From a virus: a stretch of DNA of 28,252 bases. The notes below the pieces were generated by a model that saw nothing but the letters and a program-made list of their open reading frames with translations, was not told the origin of the DNA and did not search any database. How positions within the stretch are numbered: position 1 is the first letter of the stretch; each line of letters opens with the position of its first letter. The position numbers were made by a program, and so were the translations under genes. The stretch covers positions 1-28,252 of the IMG/VR virus record IMGVR_UViG_3300046028_003526; one strand, given 5' to 3'. This document shows positions 1 through 12,392 of the stretch, in pieces.

Positions 1-207
1 GGCGACGGCGACGGCGACGACACCGGCAACGGCGACGGCGACGGCGACGGCACCGGCGACGGCAACGGCTACGGCGATGGCGACGGCTACGGCTACGGCG
101 ACGGCGACGGCTACGGCTACGGCGACGGCGACGGCAACGGCAACGGCAACGGCTACGGCGATGGCGACGGCTACGGCTACGGCTACGGCTACGGCGACGG
201 CGACGGA
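1..207 (+). repeat. Imperfect 6-bp tandem repeat GGC(G/T/A)AC
   Basis: About 34 consecutive hexamers of the form GGCGAC, GGCTAC or GGCAAC, with a few GGCGAT and GGCACC variants. Longer blocks recur, such as the unit GGCGACGGCTACGGC. Such a tract is prone to replication slippage and to misassembly, so its true length may differ from what is shown. It lies at the window edge and may extend upstream. Confidence 0.9.
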
Positions 208-210
208 TAA
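1..210 (+). CDS. Gly-X repeat protein, C-terminal end (5' end outside window)
   Basis: Reading frame 1 is open from the first base of the window to a TAA at 208-210 and encodes 69 residues. They are almost strictly alternating Gly and Asp, Tyr, Asn or Thr, for example GDGYGYGDGDG. There is no start codon, so this is the tail of a longer gene. The next genes run on the same strand, which supports the + reading. The opposite strand is also open here, reading as Val-Ala repeats. No function can be assigned. Gly-Asp-rich tails can be flexible linkers or bind calcium, but nothing here shows that. Codon use is extremely uniform (GGC, GAC, TAC, AAC), which suggests expansion of a 6-bp unit. Confidence 0.5.
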   Translation, partial: GDGDGDDTGNGDGDGDGTGDGNGYGDGDGYGYGDGDGYGYGDGDGNGNGNGYGDGDGYGYGYGYGDGDG

Positions 211-863: not shown

Positions 864-1256
864 TCACTACAGGCTTGAGATCCGTGGCAGCGGCTCCGAC
901 CGTTTGCTAGAATGTTCTCCGCGTGGTCCCTGCGATATGGGCTTACTGAAAGAGTCGAAAACCAATCGACACTCGTTTAGCCGTTAGGATACCGAGGGCA
1001 CGAGATAGCTACCGTGGACGCACAGAGTAGCAGGCGACAGGTCGGAAAGACGGCCATTTATGGTGGGAAGTGGCAAGCTGCGGACATCGGCAGCAGGTAA
1101 AGCAAGCGGGTGATGCCACGCTAATGTTGGTTCGAATCCAACCCCCGCCACCACATATGCAAGACCTCCGCACCGCCGCTTAAATCCTCTGGCACCTCCG
1201 CCAATTTGATGGGCGACTTCGCCCAATGCTACGCAACATCCTACAGAGACTGAAAT
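864..1256 (+). other. 393-nt noncoding stretch with structured RNA potential
   Basis: No open frame here has both a start and a ribosome site. Visible structure includes the tRNA-like element at 1062-1153, a hairpin GTCGA/TCGAC around 954-970, and a perfect 6-bp hairpin TGGGCG-ACTT-CGCCCA at 1210-1225 without a T tract. No clear sigma70 promoter pair was seen; TAGAAT at 908-913 lacks a well-placed -35. In an otherwise packed operon a gap this long is unusual and suggests a retained RNA or control region. Confidence 0.6.
1062..1153 (+). tRNA. tRNA-like element: T-arm and CCA acceptor, no normal anticodon arm
   Basis: The 3' part is canonical. The T-arm is GTTGG-TTCGAAT-CCAAC (1126-1142), followed by acceptor strand CCCCGCC (1143-1149), discriminator A1150 and an encoded CCA (1151-1153). 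The 5' strand GGTGGGA (1062-1068) pairs with it at six of seven positions, including one G-U. A D-arm-like AGCAGGTAAAGC occurs at 1092-1103. No 7-nt anticodon loop with U33 could be found. Instead GTGGC (1070-1074) pairs with GCCAC (1115-1119), and GCTGC (1077-1081) with GCAGC (1090-1094). At 92 nt it is long for a class I tRNA. It may be a class II or decayed tRNA, or a tRNA mimic. The isotype is not assigned. Confidence 0.45.
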
Positions 1257-3629: not shown

Positions 3630-5285
3630 ATGAAACTAAGACCGTATCAAGAAGCAGCTATTGACGCTTTGCGTGGCGCATTAAATGACGGCATGGCCCG
3701 CCCCCTGGTGTGCATGCCTACCGGCAGCGGAAAAGGCCCGACAATCGCAACGCTGGTGCATCGCGTTCATCTTAAAGACCCATCTTCTAAGATCGTTATT
3801 GCCGTTCACACGCAGGAACTGGTCGAACAGCTTTCCAAGACCTACGAAGCGATCAGCGGGAAAAAGCCTGCGGTGTACTCGGCTTCGCTGGGGGTAAAGA
3901 AGATCGGACCTGTGACCTTTTGCCAGATCCAATCGATTGCAAAAAAGGCGTGCGATTTCGGATCTATTAAATTGCTGGTGGTAGACGAATGCGACCGCAT
4001 GCCCCTTACCGGGGAAGGCCAATACCGTACGTTTCTCAAAGAAGCCGCTATCATTAACCCGAAGATCCGTATCGCAGGTTTCACGGCCACGCCGTACCGC
4101 ATGGGATCGGGCTTGGTGTATGGAGAAGGCCAGCCGTTTTCCGACATGGTGTACGATATCGGCATCAAGGAGCTGGTTCACGAGGGCTACCTGTCGCAGT
4201 TGGTATCAAAGGATGGCGGCGCTCCCGACCTGACCGGCGTTCATGTACGTCAGGGAGACTTCGTGGCGAGCGAACTGGAAGCGATCATGTCCGACGAGGA
4301 CACCGTCGCCAAGGCATGCGCCGAGATCATGCGCTGCGGTCACGACCGCAAGGCGTGGTTATTAAACGCATCCGGCATCAAGCACGCCAATCTCATCAGC
4401 GCTGTCTTAAAGACATACGGAGTAGACGCTCCGGTTATTGAGGGAAACATGGAAAAGCCCGAACGCGCACGGCTCCTTGCCGCCTATCGCAATAAAGACC
4501 TAAGGGCTTTGATTAGCGTCAATGTGCTTTCAGTGGGTTTTGATGCCAGTCACATTGATCTAGTAGGGTTGATGCGTCCGACAAAATCTGCTGGATTGTA
4601 CTACCAACAGATTGGTAGAGGGTTTCGTCGTGCCGAAGGCAAACAGAATTGCATGATTCTTGACCTTGCTGGCAACATCGCACGTCACGGGACTATCGAC
4701 ACGTTGAACGAGCGCATAAAAAACAAGAAGAAGTCTGACAAGAAAGGCGTTGCGCCGACCAAGACATGCCCAAAGTGCCAAGAGATCGTCGCAGCCGGCG
4801 TTCGGCTATGTCCGTGCTGCGAGTTTGAGTTTCCGCCACCGGAGATTGCCAAGCACGACACCGTTGCTGCGTACGACAGCCCCCTATCTAACTCTGAAAT
4901 ACGCGAAATCCCGGTAGACGCCATGACGATTCGCGTGCATTCCTCTAAAGATCCGAGCAAAGCGCCGACGCTGTGCGTCAACTACATGTGCGCATCGACC
5001 AAGATCAGCGAGTGGCTGTCGGTTGACGAAAAGGCGCATACGTGGGCACGACACAAAGCCAAGCAGTGGTTTCGTGATACGCCATTGGAAAACGCCGACG
5101 GAAAGCAGATTGTCGTTCGTGATGATGGATTGTACGGAATTACCGCAGAAAGCGAGATTCGGTTAACGACCGCTATGGCGTGCGTTCAGTTCCTGGCTTG
5201 CATTCCGAAACCCACACGCATACGCTTCCAGACCACACCGGAATCGTCCAAGTTCCCCAAGGTGTTGGGCCGGAGCTTCGCGTGA
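3630..5285 (+). CDS. SF2 DEAD/DEAH-box helicase
   Basis: A 551-residue superfamily 2 helicase of the type III restriction/RAD25-like phage group. Motifs in order: Q-like start LRPYQEAAI (3-11), Walker A PTGSGKGPT (30-38, Lys35), Walker B DECD (119-122) in place of DEAH, motif III TATP (152-155), GFD (303-305), and motif VI QQIGRGFRR (326-334) with its arginine finger. After the helicase core comes a four-Cys zinc site (C380, C383, C394, C397) and a roughly 150-residue C-terminal domain of unknown fold. It would hydrolyse ATP to unwind or remodel duplex DNA during replication or recombination. The ribosome site is weak. Its last codons overlap the primase start (GTGA). Confidence 0.9.
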   Translation: MKLRPYQEAAIDALRGALNDGMARPLVCMPTGSGKGPTIATLVHRVHLKDPSSKIVIAVHTQELVEQLSKTYEAISGKKPAVYSASLGVKKIGPVTFCQIQSIAKKACDFGSIKLLVVDECDRMPLTGEGQYRTFLKEAAIINPKIRIAGFTATPYRMGSGLVYGEGQPFSDMVYDIGIKELVHEGYLSQLVSKDGGAPDLTGVHVRQGDFVASELEAIMSDEDTVAKACAEIMRCGHDRKAWLLNASGIKHANLISAVLKTYGVDAPVIEGNMEKPERARLLAAYRNKDLRALISVNVLSVGFDASHIDLVGLMRPTKSAGLYYQQIGRGFRRAEGKQNCMILDLAGNIARHGTIDTLNERIKNKKKSDKKGVAPTKTCPKCQEIVAAGVRLCPCCEFEFPPPEIAKHDTVAAYDSPLSNSEIREIPVDAMTIRVHSSKDPSKAPTLCVNYMCASTKISEWLSVDEKAHTWARHKAKQWFRDTPLENADGKQIVVRDDGLYGITAESEIRLTTAMACVQFLACIPKPTRIRFQTTPESSKFPKVLGRSFA

Positions 5286-7360
5286 CACCAATTGAGCTTT
5301 CCCAAAAAGGCTGGCACCTTATCCCGTGGTCAAAGCGTGCTTCCTCAAGCCGCCAGCCGATGGTGAAGGGGTATCTCGGAACACTGCCAACACCGGAAGA
5401 AGTCTCTGAGTGGCATCGCAAGTGGCCGTCGTGTGATTGGGCAATCAAGCCTACGTTCCACGTCGTGCTTGATATCGAGATGAAGAATGGCCTGGATGGG
5501 GAAGCTGAACTGATCGAAAAGTTTCAGTCGCTAGAGGGTTTCCCTAGTACCAAGACTTTCAACGGGGGCCGTCACGTCTGGATGCGCGTACCTCACGACT
5601 GCACGCTCAAGGGCGGCGTGTGGATCGGTGACGCCCTGGAAGTTAAATTCAAAGCGAGCGTTCACATACCTCCATCGGAAGGGTACGAGTGGATAAGCCC
5701 GCTTGGATCGCTGACCGATGTTCCGATGGCTCCCGATTGGTTTATGGAAGCATGGGCTAAGGCTGCTCCCGTAAGCATCAAGGCCACGGAAACGGCATCG
5801 TTCCCCGAGGGTCAGCGGCATGCGCTGCTATGCTCGGCTGCGGGCGCGTTGCGTAACCTGGGGTTGGGCGAAGAAGGCATCTTCCTTGGGTTGCAGGGCG
5901 TGCGTGCCGATCGCTGCGAAAACCCCGAGACGGTCACCGATGACGAGTTGCGTGGAATCGCCAAGTCGTACGCGGAAAAAGAAGCCAGCGAATCGTTTGA
6001 TATGCGGCTCGCACGAGGCGAAGAGCGGGCTGTGATGGTCGCCAATTTCATGGCGCGTAAGATTGTGCATAAGGACGAGCCCGACCGGCACGCTGACGAA
6101 AGCTGCCCCAGGCTGAACGATAGGCAGTTGCGCCCTACACCGATGATTGCTGCGTGGGTTGATTGGGTTCTAGGCAACGCTGAGTGTCGTCAACCGGAGT
6201 TGACTTTACTTGCTGCGTGCGTAGGCATAGGTTGCGTTATGGGGCGTCGTCCGACGTGGAAGTTCACCCATGCGAATGTCTACGGGCTTGGGATGGCGTC
6301 ATCGGGATCGGGTAAAGACGCTCCGCTTCACTCTATTGAGGAGGTTCTACGTGCCGCTGGATGGGACGACCTTATAGGCGCTGCAAACCTAGGCTCCGAC
6401 GTGGGTATGCTCGACCAAATCACCCAGCATCCAGACATCGTGTGGTCTATCGACGAGATCGGTATTCTGCTTGAAAACTTGAACAAGACGCAGGTTCCGA
6501 CATACATTTCTAACATCATCTCATACCTGTTGCAGTTGTCGTCATGCAAGGCGTTCAACGGACGTGCTTTGAAAGGGGTAACTCCACAACGCATTGAGCA
6601 ACCGTACCCGTGTATCTTCGCATGCACGCAGCCGAAGATATTCCTTGGTGCGTTCAATGAGCGCATGGCCGACAACGGGTTTTTCAATCGTTTCACGGTG
6701 TTCTTAGGCGAAGACCTCCCAGCGCAACAGATTGACGTTTTGCGTGCCGCGCCACCCGAGGATCTGATTGAAGCCTTGAAGTCGGCACGCGAGAAAGCAA
6801 CTAATCCGTTGATGAACGGATCGCACGGCGGAAAGCCGGGACCGGCTGAGATTGCTGCAACACCGGAAGCCCTGGAACTGTACCGAAATAAGATAATCCA
6901 CTACAACAGCATCAAGATGGAGCTGCGCAGTAAGGACGTGATGCGTGCCACCCTCGCAGCGCGTACCCTGGAGCGGGCGAACAAGTTCACGCTCATATAC
7001 GCATGGACGCTTGACCCCGCAAACCCTGTTGTCACACCTGAAGCCGTAGAGTGGGGCTGCGAGATCGCCGAATTCAGCAACGCATGCTTGCTTCACTGTT
7101 TAAAGAACCGTATCGCATCGCCGCATGATGAACTAGCGCGAAAGATATTGACCATCATTGAGAGCTACGAGCAGACAGGCGTCTCTCAAAGCGACTTCAC
7201 TCGACACGCACAAAGCATCGAGCGAAACAAACGCGAGTCGATAATAGCGGACCTACAGCAGAGCGGGAAAGTGTACGTTCTTACCAAGAAGAACGAATCA
7301 GGCCGCGTAGTTAAACGATACAAAGCCGCTAAGTTTACCACACAAGAGGAGCGAACATGA
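5282..7360 (+). CDS. Prim-pol / DUF3987-type primase-helicase
   Basis: 692 residues from GTG 5282, which overlaps the helicase stop as GTGA and has GGAG at about 5272-5275. The open frame reaches back to 5180 inside the helicase gene, but that part has no domain. The N-terminal domain matches bifunctional primase-polymerases: metal site DIE (64-66), GGRH (95-98), and ALEVKF...IPPS (118-132). The C-terminal half is a DUF3987-like P-loop ATPase with Walker A SSGSGKDA (Lys345) and Walker B IVWSIDE (Asp391, Glu392). It likely makes primers and drives or loads onto the fork, working with the polymerase at 8869. The P-loop has Asp where Ser or Thr normally follows Lys. Confidence 0.85.
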   Translation: MTPIELSQKGWHLIPWSKRASSSRQPMVKGYLGTLPTPEEVSEWHRKWPSCDWAIKPTFHVVLDIEMKNGLDGEAELIEKFQSLEGFPSTKTFNGGRHVWMRVPHDCTLKGGVWIGDALEVKFKASVHIPPSEGYEWISPLGSLTDVPMAPDWFMEAWAKAAPVSIKATETASFPEGQRHALLCSAAGALRNLGLGEEGIFLGLQGVRADRCENPETVTDDELRGIAKSYAEKEASESFDMRLARGEERAVMVANFMARKIVHKDEPDRHADESCPRLNDRQLRPTPMIAAWVDWVLGNAECRQPELTLLAACVGIGCVMGRRPTWKFTHANVYGLGMASSGSGKDAPLHSIEEVLRAAGWDDLIGAANLGSDVGMLDQITQHPDIVWSIDEIGILLENLNKTQVPTYISNIISYLLQLSSCKAFNGRALKGVTPQRIEQPYPCIFACTQPKIFLGAFNERMADNGFFNRFTVFLGEDLPAQQIDVLRAAPPEDLIEALKSAREKATNPLMNGSHGGKPGPAEIAATPEALELYRNKIIHYNSIKMELRSKDVMRATLAARTLERANKFTLIYAWTLDPANPVVTPEAVEWGCEIAEFSNACLLHCLKNRIASPHDELARKILTIIESYEQTGVSQSDFTRHAQSIERNKRESIIADLQQSGKVYVLTKKNESGRVVKRYKAAKFTTQEERT

Positions 7361-8660: not shown

Positions 8661-8872
8661 ACCACACTACCGACTACCTAGACATCATTGGACCGGAGCC
8701 CGATCTATCCGACTACCGGGATTTGCACCGATGGGATAAATGGGGCGTGTGGTTCAGACGATTCTCAAAGCTAGCTCCGTTCTCCAACGGAACAGTTAAC
8801 GAAGACGGAACCGTACATTACACGCCCGTGCTACGGTCACAACGCACACGGATTTTTAGAGAGAATAAATGA
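8657..8872 (+). CDS. Small hypothetical protein upstream of DNA polymerase
   Basis: 71 residues, with ATGA overlaps to both neighbours (8657 and 8869). Rich in Trp, Arg and Asp (DLHRWDKWGVWFRRFSKL at residues 23-40), ending in a basic tail. Translation is linked to the polymerase gene. No family recognised. Confidence 0.6.
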   Translation: MNHTTDYLDIIGPEPDLSDYRDLHRWDKWGVWFRRFSKLAPFSNGTVNEDGTVHYTPVLRSQRTRIFRENK

Positions 8873-10860
8873 AACTCAGTATCGACTTTGAAACTCGTAG
8901 CTTAGCAGACCTGTCCGAAGTCGGTGCATGGAACTATTCGCTGCACGAAAGTACGGTCGTGCTGATGTGCGCTATTTCGGCTGATGGGGGGAAGGCTACG
9001 TGCTTTGATTGCCGCCAGCCGGATGTGCTAAACGTCGTCAAGCTCATGCTGCAAGACGCAGACGAGATCCACGCTTGGAATGTCGGCTTTGAGTACGCCT
9101 TGATTACGAACGTGCTTAAGCTGGACATTCCGCTGCTGCGGTTCTTTGACACGATGGCAAAAGCGTGTGCGTTTTCAGTGCCCGCGTCTCTCGGCAAGTG
9201 CGGTGCGGCGTTGAACCTACCGATACAGAAGGACAAGGAAGGCGACCGGCTCATGAAGCTGTTCAGCATGCCCGCTACGGCAGGCAAGCTGAAAGGGCAA
9301 TTGCGCGAGATGACGCCGGAGCTCGAATCCGAATATGCCCGCTATATGGACTACTGCCGCCAGGATGTGGAAGCCGAGATGGCGATTGATGCAGCGTTGC
9401 CGGATCTGACGGGTGACGATCTGGCGTTCTGGCGCACAACGTGGATTACGAACCTGCGCGGAATCCCTATTGACATGGAGTTGGTTACGTCGCTGCAAAA
9501 GATGGTCGAGCGTGGCGAGAAGGTTATCGGTTCTGCCGTCAGCGAGCGTACTGACGGAGCCCTTGATGGGTACGTGCTCAAGAATAACCACAACAAAGTG
9601 TCAAAGTATCTTGACTTGCCAAGCGTGGCTAAGGCGTACGTCAAGGAAGTTCTAGCGCGTGCTGACGTTGATCCCAAGACACGCGAGCTGCTAGAAGCAC
9701 GGCAAGCGTTGGGCCGTACCGCCGTGGCGAAGCTGCCGAAGTTCAAGAACTACGCATCTGTCGTGGATCACCGCGTACGGGATGCACACCGGTTTAACGG
9801 CGCACAGTCGGGCCGCGATACGAGTCTCGGCATTAACCTGATGAACTTGCCACGCGGTGCGAAGTTCGATGTGCCGAAGCTAATTGCGTGTGCTAAGGCG
9901 GATGATTGGGAAGGCTTCTTTGAGACGGCAAAGTACCACGTCGGAAAGAACGGGCCGGTTCCGGTACTGTTCGATCCGCTAGGAGCGGTTGTCGCATGCC
10001 TGCGTGGCTGCATCGCACCAAAGCAAGGAGTCCTGTATCAGTGCGACTATGCGAGTATCGAGCCGCGTGTGCTAGCTTGGTACTCGGGCCAGGAGTGGGA
10101 GCTAGAGGCGTGGCGGAAGTACGATGCAAAGCAGGGGCCGGACTTGTACAAGGTGTTTGCCGGTAAGTTGTGGGGGATTGAACCTGACGCAGTATTGGGC
10201 GACCAACGACAGCTCGGTAAATGTGGAAAACTAGCGGCATCCTATAGGACCGGGTGGAAAACTTTGCAAACGCAAGGCAAGGACGTCTACGGACTAATTC
10301 TGTCTGACGCGGAAGCGCAGTTCATCATCGACGGATACCGTGCAACGCACCGTGAAAACGTGGCGTTCTGGCACAATACCGAGAAGGCCGCAGAGAAGGC
10401 CGTTGACAATCCAGGTTCCGTATACAGCATAGGCAAAGCAGCGTACCGATTCGACGGCTTGCATCTGCAATGTCGTCTCGCTTCTGGTCGCAAGATCACC
10501 TACCCGTATGCCACCATGGAGACCGTTGTGCATCCTGAGTACGGCACTAAGCGCCAGTTGCACTACATGTGCGAAGACGGCCCCGGTAAGGCGTGGCGTA
10601 AGATCAGCACGCATGGTGGGGTTCTTACGAACCACATTGTGCAGGGTACTTCTGGCTGCCTGCTACGCTACGCCTGTAACAACCTGGAAGCGGCGGGCTT
10701 CAAGGTCATCCTTCGTATCTACGACGAGATCGTAGCCGAGATGCCCGACGCTTCACGCTTTGACGAGTTTCAACGCATCATTCTCCAGCTTCCAGAATGG
10801 GCAGAAGGTCTGCCTGTCAGTGGCGCTGGTTGGGTTGCTGGATGCTACAAAAAGGATTAA
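8869..10860 (+). CDS. polA: Family A DNA polymerase with 3'-5' exonuclease
   Basis: 663 residues. The N-terminal DnaQ-like proofreading domain has Exo I DFE (Asp6, Glu8), Exo II NVGFE (71-75) and Exo III YCRQD (162-166). The polymerase domain has SGRDTS...NLPR (314-329), motif A QCDYASIEPR (391-400, Asp393), motif B RQLGK...SY (447-459), and motif C IYDE (617-620), with Tyr where most family A enzymes have His. There is no 5'-3' nuclease domain, as in other phage replicative Pol A enzymes. ATGA coupling to the previous gene; GAGAG lies just upstream. It is the phage replicase, using primers from the prim-pol protein. Confidence 0.95.
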   Translation: MKLSIDFETRSLADLSEVGAWNYSLHESTVVLMCAISADGGKATCFDCRQPDVLNVVKLMLQDADEIHAWNVGFEYALITNVLKLDIPLLRFFDTMAKACAFSVPASLGKCGAALNLPIQKDKEGDRLMKLFSMPATAGKLKGQLREMTPELESEYARYMDYCRQDVEAEMAIDAALPDLTGDDLAFWRTTWITNLRGIPIDMELVTSLQKMVERGEKVIGSAVSERTDGALDGYVLKNNHNKVSKYLDLPSVAKAYVKEVLARADVDPKTRELLEARQALGRTAVAKLPKFKNYASVVDHRVRDAHRFNGAQSGRDTSLGINLMNLPRGAKFDVPKLIACAKADDWEGFFETAKYHVGKNGPVPVLFDPLGAVVACLRGCIAPKQGVLYQCDYASIEPRVLAWYSGQEWELEAWRKYDAKQGPDLYKVFAGKLWGIEPDAVLGDQRQLGKCGKLAASYRTGWKTLQTQGKDVYGLILSDAEAQFIIDGYRATHRENVAFWHNTEKAAEKAVDNPGSVYSIGKAAYRFDGLHLQCRLASGRKITYPYATMETVVHPEYGTKRQLHYMCEDGPGKAWRKISTHGGVLTNHIVQGTSGCLLRYACNNLEAAGFKVILRIYDEIVAEMPDASRFDEFQRIILQLPEWAEGLPVSGAGWVAGCYKKD

Positions 10861-11421: not shown

Positions 11422-12070
11422 TACCGAACAACTACCTAACGAATGCGCGTTGTGCCTTGTTTGCGGCACCCCTGTCAGTAGAGGACGAAACATTTTTTGC
11501 TCGTCTGAATGTAGTTCAGAGGCGAAAATAGAGGCACACGCCTTATCAGTGCAATGCGAAGTCTGTAAGGCCTGCGGAGTTATAAAGGGGTCGGCTGCAA
11601 TACAGGCATACCGGAAAACGGGCTACTGGACTTGTTCTAAAGCGTGCGGTGCGGCACAGAGATCAAAAGTAAGCAGAGCACGCATGTTGGCCAAAAGAAA
11701 AACTACCGACGTTCCTGAAAACACACCCTGTCACGTGTGCGGTAAAGATATTACGATAGACGACACTACTAAAATAGGTCTTTTGCGGAGAAGCCGCTAT
11801 GTTCGAGGGGTGCCACAAACATGCAGCCGCCAATGCTCCGCTGCCGCAGGGCATGCGGTTCGATTTGCTGCGATAAGGGCTTTTGAAGCGTCTTGCCCCG
11901 AAACTACACCTTGTGGATACTGTGGCGCGGCTATTGAAATAAAAAGTGGCACAAGGTCAAAGCAACAAAGAAGACTACGTCTTCTGTTTCAGAAAAAAAA
12001 CATATTTTGTAGCACATCATGTTCCTTAAAACACACGAAAAGATATGAAAATCCAACTACCCGGTCTTGA
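11414..12070 (+). CDS. Protein with four CxxC-CxxxC zinc modules
   Basis: 218 residues with four similar Cys4 sets: C14/C17/C29/C33, C51/C54/C74/C78, C106/C109/C137/C141 and C167/C170/C199/C203. Each has CxxC, a spacer of 11 to 28 residues, then CSxxC. Basic segments lie between them (SRARMLAKRKT, RSKQQRRLRLLFQKK). This looks like tandem treble-clef or HNH-type zinc ribbons, but the His/Asn catalytic residues of HNH nucleases were not seen. DNA or RNA binding is likely by charge. It overlaps the RusA-type gene by 26 nt. Confidence 0.6.
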   Translation: MADTEQLPNECALCLVCGTPVSRGRNIFCSSECSSEAKIEAHALSVQCEVCKACGVIKGSAAIQAYRKTGYWTCSKACGAAQRSKVSRARMLAKRKTTDVPENTPCHVCGKDITIDDTTKIGLLRRSRYVRGVPQTCSRQCSAAAGHAVRFAAIRAFEASCPETTPCGYCGAAIEIKSGTRSKQQRRLRLLFQKKNIFCSTSCSLKHTKRYENPTTRS

Positions 12071-12392
12071 ACCCTGTGCTAAAGCTCGCCCCCGTGTCAC
12101 AGCACGGGGTACGTACATGCCCAAACGCTACCAAGACTGGCGCAAGAAGTTCGTGGCGATGTGGCGATCTACGGTTCCACATTACCAATGGAACGAACCC
12201 GTGGGTATTAACGTGCGGTGGACTACGCCGACCGGCAAGTGCAAGCCGGACCTGGACAACGCGATTGCGGCCATCTTTGATGCGTTGCAAGACGCAGGCG
12301 CGTTATCAAACGACTCGCTTGTGCGGTCAGGAAGTTTCCGTATCGACGTAGGCCCGTTGGCGACCTACGTTGAGATCACTCCTCACGTGTGA
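12045..12392 (+). CDS. rusA: RusA-type Holliday junction resolvase
   Basis: 115 residues with the family layout: KARPRVTARGTYMPKRYQDW (13-32), KPDLDNAIAAIFDAL (67-81) and a late Asp90. Asp69, Asp71 and Asp90 match the three catalytic aspartates of E. coli RusA. The enzyme cuts four-way junctions symmetrically, clearing recombination and replication intermediates before packaging. It starts inside the zinc-module gene (26-nt overlap) with a weak ribosome site. It is the last gene of the + operon, and its final 17 bases overlap the end of the convergent late operon. Confidence 0.9.
   Translation: MKIQLPGLEPCAKARPRVTARGTYMPKRYQDWRKKFVAMWRSTVPHYQWNEPVGINVRWTTPTGKCKPDLDNAIAAIFDALQDAGALSNDSLVRSGSFRIDVGPLATYVEITPHV

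What the first reader, a model, noticed from the sequence alone, without database searches (positions are those of the whole stretch)
1062..1153. tRNA-like RNA with perfect T-arm and CCA end but no anticodon arm
The 3' half is exactly tRNA-like with an encoded CCA, and the acceptor pairs at six of seven positions. The rest folds into a GTGGC/GCCAC stem and a GCTGC/GCAGC hairpin instead of D and anticodon arms. It sits in the only long noncoding gap of the window. It could be a tRNA mimic that engages host tRNA enzymes, a reduced tmRNA-like acceptor domain, or a decayed tRNA.
Basis: partly seen in the sequence, partly recalled or inferred. Interest (0 to 1): 0.65.

Follow-up and report, generated by a model that had tools for sequence, protein, structure and literature searches.

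The report
Remodelled phage tRNA, probably non-decoding
A small phage RNA keeps the part of a transfer RNA that host tRNA enzymes recognise (acceptor stem, T arm, CCA end), but its other two arms are rebuilt so that it probably cannot read codons, and at least eight related phage contigs carry it.

Summary
The observation largely holds. Window 1062-1153 carries a perfect T arm, an encoded ACCA end and a 6-of-7 acceptor stem. Only 2 such motifs arose in 300 random windows of equal length. No tRNA, tmRNA or Rfam family is called at standard thresholds. All eight contigs that cover the locus carry the element at 92-96% identity. Acceptor and T stem stay paired in all of them, with one two-sided change in the T stem.

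'No anticodon arm' is only partly right. Positions 1092-1153 map one-to-one onto tRNA positions 14-76, with one base deleted: D-loop signature AGCMGGTA, a 4-bp anticodon stem, a six-base loop containing U-GAU, a 5-nt variable loop, T arm and CCA. What departs is the 5' side: 17 extra bases, with a GCTGC/GCAGC hairpin replacing the D stem.

Best reading: a tRNA-derived RNA, possibly from an Ile(GAU)-type tRNA, probably matured by host RNase P and serving as a non-decoding mimic. The target is inferred. Constraint is supported but partly confounded, because neighbouring DNA is also conserved. The element is confined to one small phage group.

The parts
1062..1068 (+). acceptor stem, 5' strand (GGTGGGA; GGCGGGA in relatives)
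   Evidence: pairs with 1143-1149 at six of seven positions; changes at 1064 and 1144 keep pairing
1069..1091 (+). segment between acceptor strand and D-loop signature, 17 nt longer than in a canonical tRNA
   Evidence: cols 1-30 stand where tRNA positions 1-13 should be
1077..1094 (+). hairpin GCTGC-GRACATCG-GCAGC in the place of the D arm
   Evidence: invariant stem in seven distinct variants, in the best fold of six of the seven
1092..1099 (+). D-loop signature AGC[A/C]GGTA (A14 R15 Y16 N17 G18 G19 U20 A21)
   Evidence: sequence; spacing to A26, anticodon stem and T arm is canonical
1101..1122 (+). arm in the anticodon position: AGC-AA-GYGG-[RTGATG]-CCRC-GCT, hexaloop with U-GAU
   Evidence: RNAalifold consensus; 98% of cells paired, one C.A mismatch in the window itself
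1121..1125 (+). five-base variable loop CTAAT in the canonical reading
   Evidence: spacing to T stem
1126..1142 (+). T arm
   Evidence: 5/5 pairs; pair 1127/1141 is U-A, C-G or U-G in different relatives
1143..1153 (+). acceptor 3' strand, discriminator A1150 and encoded CCA 1151-1153
   Evidence: sequence, identical CCA in all eight contigs
864..934 (+). conserved leader with a sigma-70-like promoter match 884-913 (GTGGCA-18-TAGAAT, extended -10)
   Evidence: 11 of 70 columns variable; promoter scan 1 found against 0.4 expected; L008 has lost the -10 match
936..1055 (+). about 118-nt segment present in window, L002, L003, L004, L007 and absent from L005, L006, L008
   Evidence: alignment; found only in these phages among viral contigs

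Best explanation
The element is a phage-encoded RNA of about 92 nt descended from a class I tRNA, with an Ile(GAU)-type anticodon as a guess. It keeps the acceptor stem, T arm, D-loop GG and CCA end. The D stem has been replaced by an extended hairpin and the anticodon loop cut to six bases. Proposed working: it is transcribed with or near the replication genes; host RNase P cuts at 1061/1062, as it does on acceptor/T-stem substrates; the encoded CCA gives a ready 3' end; the folded elbow is recognised by host tRNA-binding enzymes; and because it should not decode, it acts as a mimic or decoy (for example of a tRNA-targeting defence enzyme or a tRNA-handling protein) rather than in translation. 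Shown here: sequence, motif, conservation of acceptor and T stem, absence of a standard tRNA call. Indicated: tRNA descent. Inferred only: transcription, RNase P cleavage, failure to decode, the target.
For: Motif rare by chance. Present in all eight contigs that reach the locus. Acceptor and T stem paired in all variants, with the T-stem pair seen as U-A, C-G and U-G. 11 of 92 columns variable against 43 of 72 fourfold sites of the adjacent DUF669 gene, Fisher p = 1e-10. No codon periodicity: 5, 4 and 2 changes in the three phases. tRNA descent: Rfam tRNA at 12-15 bits aligned to about 1092-1150 in relatives; blastn E = 0.02 to tRNA-Ile of Streptomyces phage Gilson over 1096-1145; the model built from this RNA scores intact tRNAs up to 33 bits; canonical spacing from A14 to A76 exceeds shuffles at p = 0.007-0.026. 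Processing precedent: RNase P cleaves acceptor + T-arm model hairpins (PMC11143913), and mascRNA, with a reduced D arm and no conserved anticodon loop, is matured this way (PMC11693755). Defence precedent: phage tRNAs altered in the anticodon loop are proposed to evade tRNA-targeting defences (PMC10264068).
Against: No expression or processing data. Only seven distinct sequences, too close for real covariation: control (a) is not exceeded. Low divergence extends to the neighbouring small ORF (2 of 11 fourfold sites variable) and leader (16%), so part of the constraint may be a property of the block. The canonical mapping is only modestly better than shuffles. In all variants the base just 5' of 1062 (U) could pair with A1150, which may disturb RNase P cleavage. 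No target is known.
Confidence: 0.45

Rival explanations
1. A working but eccentric tRNA, for example tRNA-Ile(GAU), that tolerates an enlarged D region and a six-base anticodon loop and takes part in translation, perhaps protected from anticodon nucleases by its altered loop.
For: Canonical spacing from A14 to A76, U33 and GAU invariant in all variants; altered anticodon loops are known in phage tRNAs.
Against: No D stem in canonical register; position 38 missing; ARAGORN finds nothing at default, and when relaxed gives two incompatible readings (undetermined/GAUG and Leu-CAG) at thresholds where the window alone has 7-25 hits.
Confidence: 0.17
2. A tRNA pseudogene still drifting; conservation reflects the recent common ancestry of these phages and of this DNA block.
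For: Neighbouring small ORF and leader are also little diverged; interior stems show few informative changes.
Against: Phages with 40% divergence at fourfold sites of the adjacent gene differ at 5 of 92 bases here; every change in acceptor and T stem keeps pairing; DNA just 3' of the CCA is 40% variable.
Confidence: 0.17
3. A tRNA-like punctuation signal: host RNase P and 3' processing at this element separate the upstream transcript from the downstream ORFs, and the RNA itself has no further role.
For: An ORF (MQDL...) begins 1-4 nt after the CCA in all but L007; mascRNA precursors are cut at tRNA-like elements.
Against: That ORF is broken by a stop in the window (MQDLRTAA*); L007 has 128 extra nt and a terminator-like site between CCA and the ORF; punctuation does not need the conserved interior.
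Confidence: 0.1
4. An integration site (attP) carrying the 3' end of a host tRNA gene.
For: The 28 bases 1126-1153 equal the 3' end of an initiator tRNA gene in one genome (L134), and at L188 in another such an end stands alone, apparently at an integrated element.
Against: No tyrosine or serine recombinase in the window or the relatives tested; 5' acceptor strand present and kept paired; identity stops at the T stem; four variants of the 28 bases exist among relatives.
Confidence: 0.05
5. A reduced tmRNA acceptor domain.
For: T arm and acceptor resemble the tRNA-like domain of tmRNA.
Against: No tmRNA call at default thresholds; tmRNA models match only the T arm at about 10 bits against cut-offs of 47-84; no room for a tag frame and pseudoknots between 1068 and 1126.
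Confidence: 0.02

Closest known systems
Phage-encoded tRNAs altered in the anticodon loop (mycobacteriophage cluster C1, T5 tRNA-Lys; PMC10264068, PMC11455837)
   Same: phage gene, tRNA acceptor/T arm, altered anticodon loop
   Different: those are full tRNAs that decode; here the D stem is gone, 17 nt are inserted and no standard tRNA is called
mascRNA / menRNA (tRNA-like RNAs of MALAT1 and MEN beta/NEAT1; PMC11693755)
   Same: acceptor and T arm kept, D arm altered, no conserved anticodon loop; that RNA is matured by tRNA enzymes, as proposed here
   Different: animal nuclear lncRNA 3' ends; CCA added, not encoded; no shared ancestry implied
Streptomyces phage Gilson tRNA-Ile(UAU), NC_048742.1 94175-94247
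   Same: closest sequence match from D-loop to T arm (80%, E = 0.02)
   Different: a standard 73-nt tRNA found by ARAGORN, without the insertion
tRNA-OTHER (pseudo) of Serratia phage BF, KY630187.1 296567-296691
   Same: phage tRNA frame with a rebuilt arm, not called by ARAGORN
   Different: there the anticodon arm, not the D side, is replaced; no sequence kinship beyond the T arm

Membership tests
tRNA (Rfam RF00005 / ARAGORN) | score above curated or default threshold | tested here: not met
   ARAGORN 0 genes; RF00005 12-15 bits against 29
tRNA (Rfam RF00005 / ARAGORN) | acceptor stem, T arm and CCA end | tested here: met
   6 of 7 acceptor pairs
tRNA (Rfam RF00005 / ARAGORN) | D arm with D stem in register | tested here: not met
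   D-loop signature present but positions 10-13/22-25 do not pair; GCTGC hairpin instead
tRNA (Rfam RF00005 / ARAGORN) | anticodon stem of 5 bp with seven-base loop and U33 | tested here: not met
   4-bp stem, six-base loop; U33 and GAU present
tRNA (Rfam RF00005 / ARAGORN) | aminoacylation and decoding | not testable with these tools
   needs experiment
Class II tRNA / tRNA-Sec | covariance-model match with long variable arm | tested here: not met
   tRNA-Sec 15.3 bits against 47, E = 3; ARAGORN Leu(CAG) only when relaxed and only in L006/L008
tmRNA | tmRNA model match and tag reading frame | tested here: not met
RNase P substrate (functional class) | cleavage at the 5' end of the acceptor stem | not testable with these tools
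   anatomy fits known model substrates
phage attP at a tRNA gene | adjacent integrase | tested here: not met
   no PF00589 or PF00239 match in the window or the relatives tested, which are fragments

The most novel reading that the evidence does not exclude
A phage has turned a tRNA into a dedicated non-decoding mimic: an RNA that passes through host tRNA maturation, keeps the elbow and CCA end, and neutralises or diverts a host tRNA-binding enzyme such as a tRNA-cleaving or tRNA-sensing defence.
Probability: 0.3. Interest if true: 0.68.

Novelty: new variant of a known kind. Interest (0 to 1): 0.42.

Why it matters
Odd phage tRNAs tend to fall below annotation thresholds or to be labelled pseudogenes. 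A case in which the rebuilt form is kept across diverged phages suggests that some of them are working RNAs of another kind, and phage tRNAs are now linked to escape from tRNA-targeting defences. The element offers a small, testable tRNA-shaped RNA: does RNase P cut it, is it charged, and what binds it?

Tried and rejected
Standard tRNA, class II tRNA, tRNA-Sec, tmRNA and permuted tmRNA. A tRNA with an anticodon-loop intron (ARAGORN intron options: nothing at the default score). Protein coding through the element: one sense and two antisense frames are open in all variants, but the changes show no codon phase and leader frames shift between relatives. attP. Distant homologues: four pattern scans of IMG/VR, 80 helicase relatives and 9 polymerase relatives gave only the same group; blastn to phages and plasmids gave mostly T-arm matches and one tRNA-Ile. 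Contigs of the group without the element begin downstream of it, so they are not counter-examples.

Full report
Setting. The window is a 28,252-bp virus record of IMG/VR. The first 12 kb carry a replication module on the + strand: a DUF669/single-strand-binding-like protein (274-735), helicase (3630-5285), primase (5180-7360), family A DNA polymerase (8869-10860) and a RusA-like resolvase (12045-12392). On the - strand lie a gene with a tail-collar domain and one with a weak match to a virion structural protein. The element lies in a 393-base gap (864-1256) between a 32-residue ORF (765-863) and a pentapeptide-repeat ORF (1257-1709).

The observation. The 3' part, GTTGG-TTCGAAT-CCAAC-CCCCGCC-A-CCA (1126-1153), is a perfect T arm and an encoded CCA end. 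The acceptor 5' strand GGTGGGA (1062-1068) pairs at six of seven positions. A T arm + CCA + acceptor of this kind occurs once in the window; 2 arose in 300 random windows of the same length and dinucleotide habit. ARAGORN and Rfam at curated cut-offs find nothing; the best sub-threshold match is tRNA-Sec at 15.3 bits, E = 3.

Relatives. Seven other viral contigs encode a 92-98% identical DUF669 protein, and every one has the element at 92-96% identity in the same place. Contigs of the same phage group without it (L017, L019, L021, L023, L024) start downstream of the locus, as judged from the position of helicase or polymerase in them. More distant helicase relatives lack it. No other locus in IMG/VR was found by four patterns, and the extra loci hit by one pattern look like chance matches in coding DNA.

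Structure. Consensus folding gives a cloverleaf-like shape: acceptor 1062-1067/1144-1149; arm I with the GCTGC/GCAGC hairpin (1077-1081/1090-1094); arm II 1101-1122, two helices with an AA bulge and hexaloop RTGATG; T arm. In acceptor and T stem every change keeps pairing: 1064 is U or C opposite G; 1144 is C or U opposite G; 1127/1141 is U-A, C-G or U-G. The A.C mismatch at 1068/1143 is constant. The data cannot prove arm I or II by covariation, because their columns hardly vary.

Descent. Positions 1092-1153 correspond one-to-one with tRNA positions 14-76, with position 38 missing: AGC[A/C]GGTA as D loop, A26, anticodon stem 28-31/39-42 (GYGG/CCRC), U33, GAU as 34-36, purine 37, a five-base variable loop ending in U48, T arm, A73, CCA. 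This spacing beats shuffled middles at p = 0.007-0.026. The Rfam tRNA model aligns the same stretch in four relatives at 12-15 bits. blastn finds tRNA-Ile of Streptomyces phage Gilson at 80% over 1096-1145, E = 0.02. A model built from the element gives intact tRNA genes up to 33 bits, largely through the T arm and acceptor. The departure is on the 5' side: 30 bases stand where positions 1-13 should be, and the D stem cannot form in register. I therefore read it as a tRNA with a 17-base enlargement between acceptor strand and D loop and a shortened anticodon loop.

Constraint. Over seven distinct variants 11 of 92 columns vary, against 43 of 72 fourfold sites in the DUF669 gene (p = 1e-10). 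Phages that differ at 40% of fourfold sites differ at 5 of 92 bases here. The changes fall 5/4/2 in the three phases, so this is not protein-level constraint. A caution: the leader (16% variable) and the neighbouring small ORF (2 of 11 fourfold sites variable) are also little diverged, so the block as a whole may be young or exchanged; the DNA just after the CCA is 40% variable.

Expression. A promoter-like site with extended -10 lies at 884-913; the hexamer is intact in all variants but L008. A segment of about 118 nt between it and the element is absent from three relatives. In L007, 128 nt inserted right after the CCA end in a hairpin followed by TTTTTT, which could terminate the RNA. None of this shows transcription.

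How it may work. [quoted passage not shown] mascRNA is matured by tRNA enzymes although its D arm is reduced and it has no conserved anticodon loop (PMC11693755). The element has the parts that such enzymes are known to recognise, plus an encoded CCA. With a six-base anticodon loop and no D stem it is unlikely to decode. Phage tRNAs are linked to escape from tRNA-cleaving defences (PMC10264068; PMC11455837). The most likely role is a non-decoding mimic or decoy of host tRNA-binding enzymes; the target is a guess.

Verdict. The element is not a member of the tRNA family by standard tests, but it is probably a tRNA descendant and has the anatomy of a tRNA mimic. I file it as a new variant of a known kind.

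Noticed in passing
L245 (Gordonia phage GodonK MK620899.1, reverse strand near 81,500-81,680): An unannotated tRNA 3' half with T arm and CCA (CCCCTGCACCA) is followed three bases later by what looks like a tRNA 5' half (GCGGGGGTAGCCCAACGGTAGAGGC) with a complementary acceptor strand: possibly a circularly permuted tRNA or tmRNA.
   Followed up: no
L247 (Erwinia phage Berlingot OQ818695.1) 4,900-5,200: A stretch without annotated genes carries three T-arm/acceptor units; one passes the Rfam tRNA cut-off (30.7 bits) with a shortened anticodon arm, and ARAGORN reports none at default.
   Followed up: partly
L246 (Serratia phage BF KY630187.1 296567-296691): A tRNA frame whose anticodon arm is replaced by about 50 extra bases, annotated as pseudo tRNA-OTHER.
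   Followed up: no
window 1157-1183 and relatives: An ORF (MQDLRTAAQILWHLR..., about 50 residues) starts 1-4 nt after the encoded CCA in all but L007, without an obvious ribosome-binding site; in the window it is cut by a stop after eight residues.
   Followed up: partly
L007 4040-4167: A 128-nt insertion exactly after the CCA, ending in a terminator-like hairpin and TTTTTT; it shares about 30 bases at 80% with the 118-nt segment upstream of the element.
   Followed up: partly
L188 1535-1585 (genome contig): The 3' end of an initiator tRNA-Met stands alone without the rest of the gene, probably one end of an integrated element.
   Followed up: no
window 1-210: Low-complexity GGCGACGGC/GGCTACGGC repeat just upstream of the DUF669 gene; other sequence stands there in L006 and L007.
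   Followed up: no
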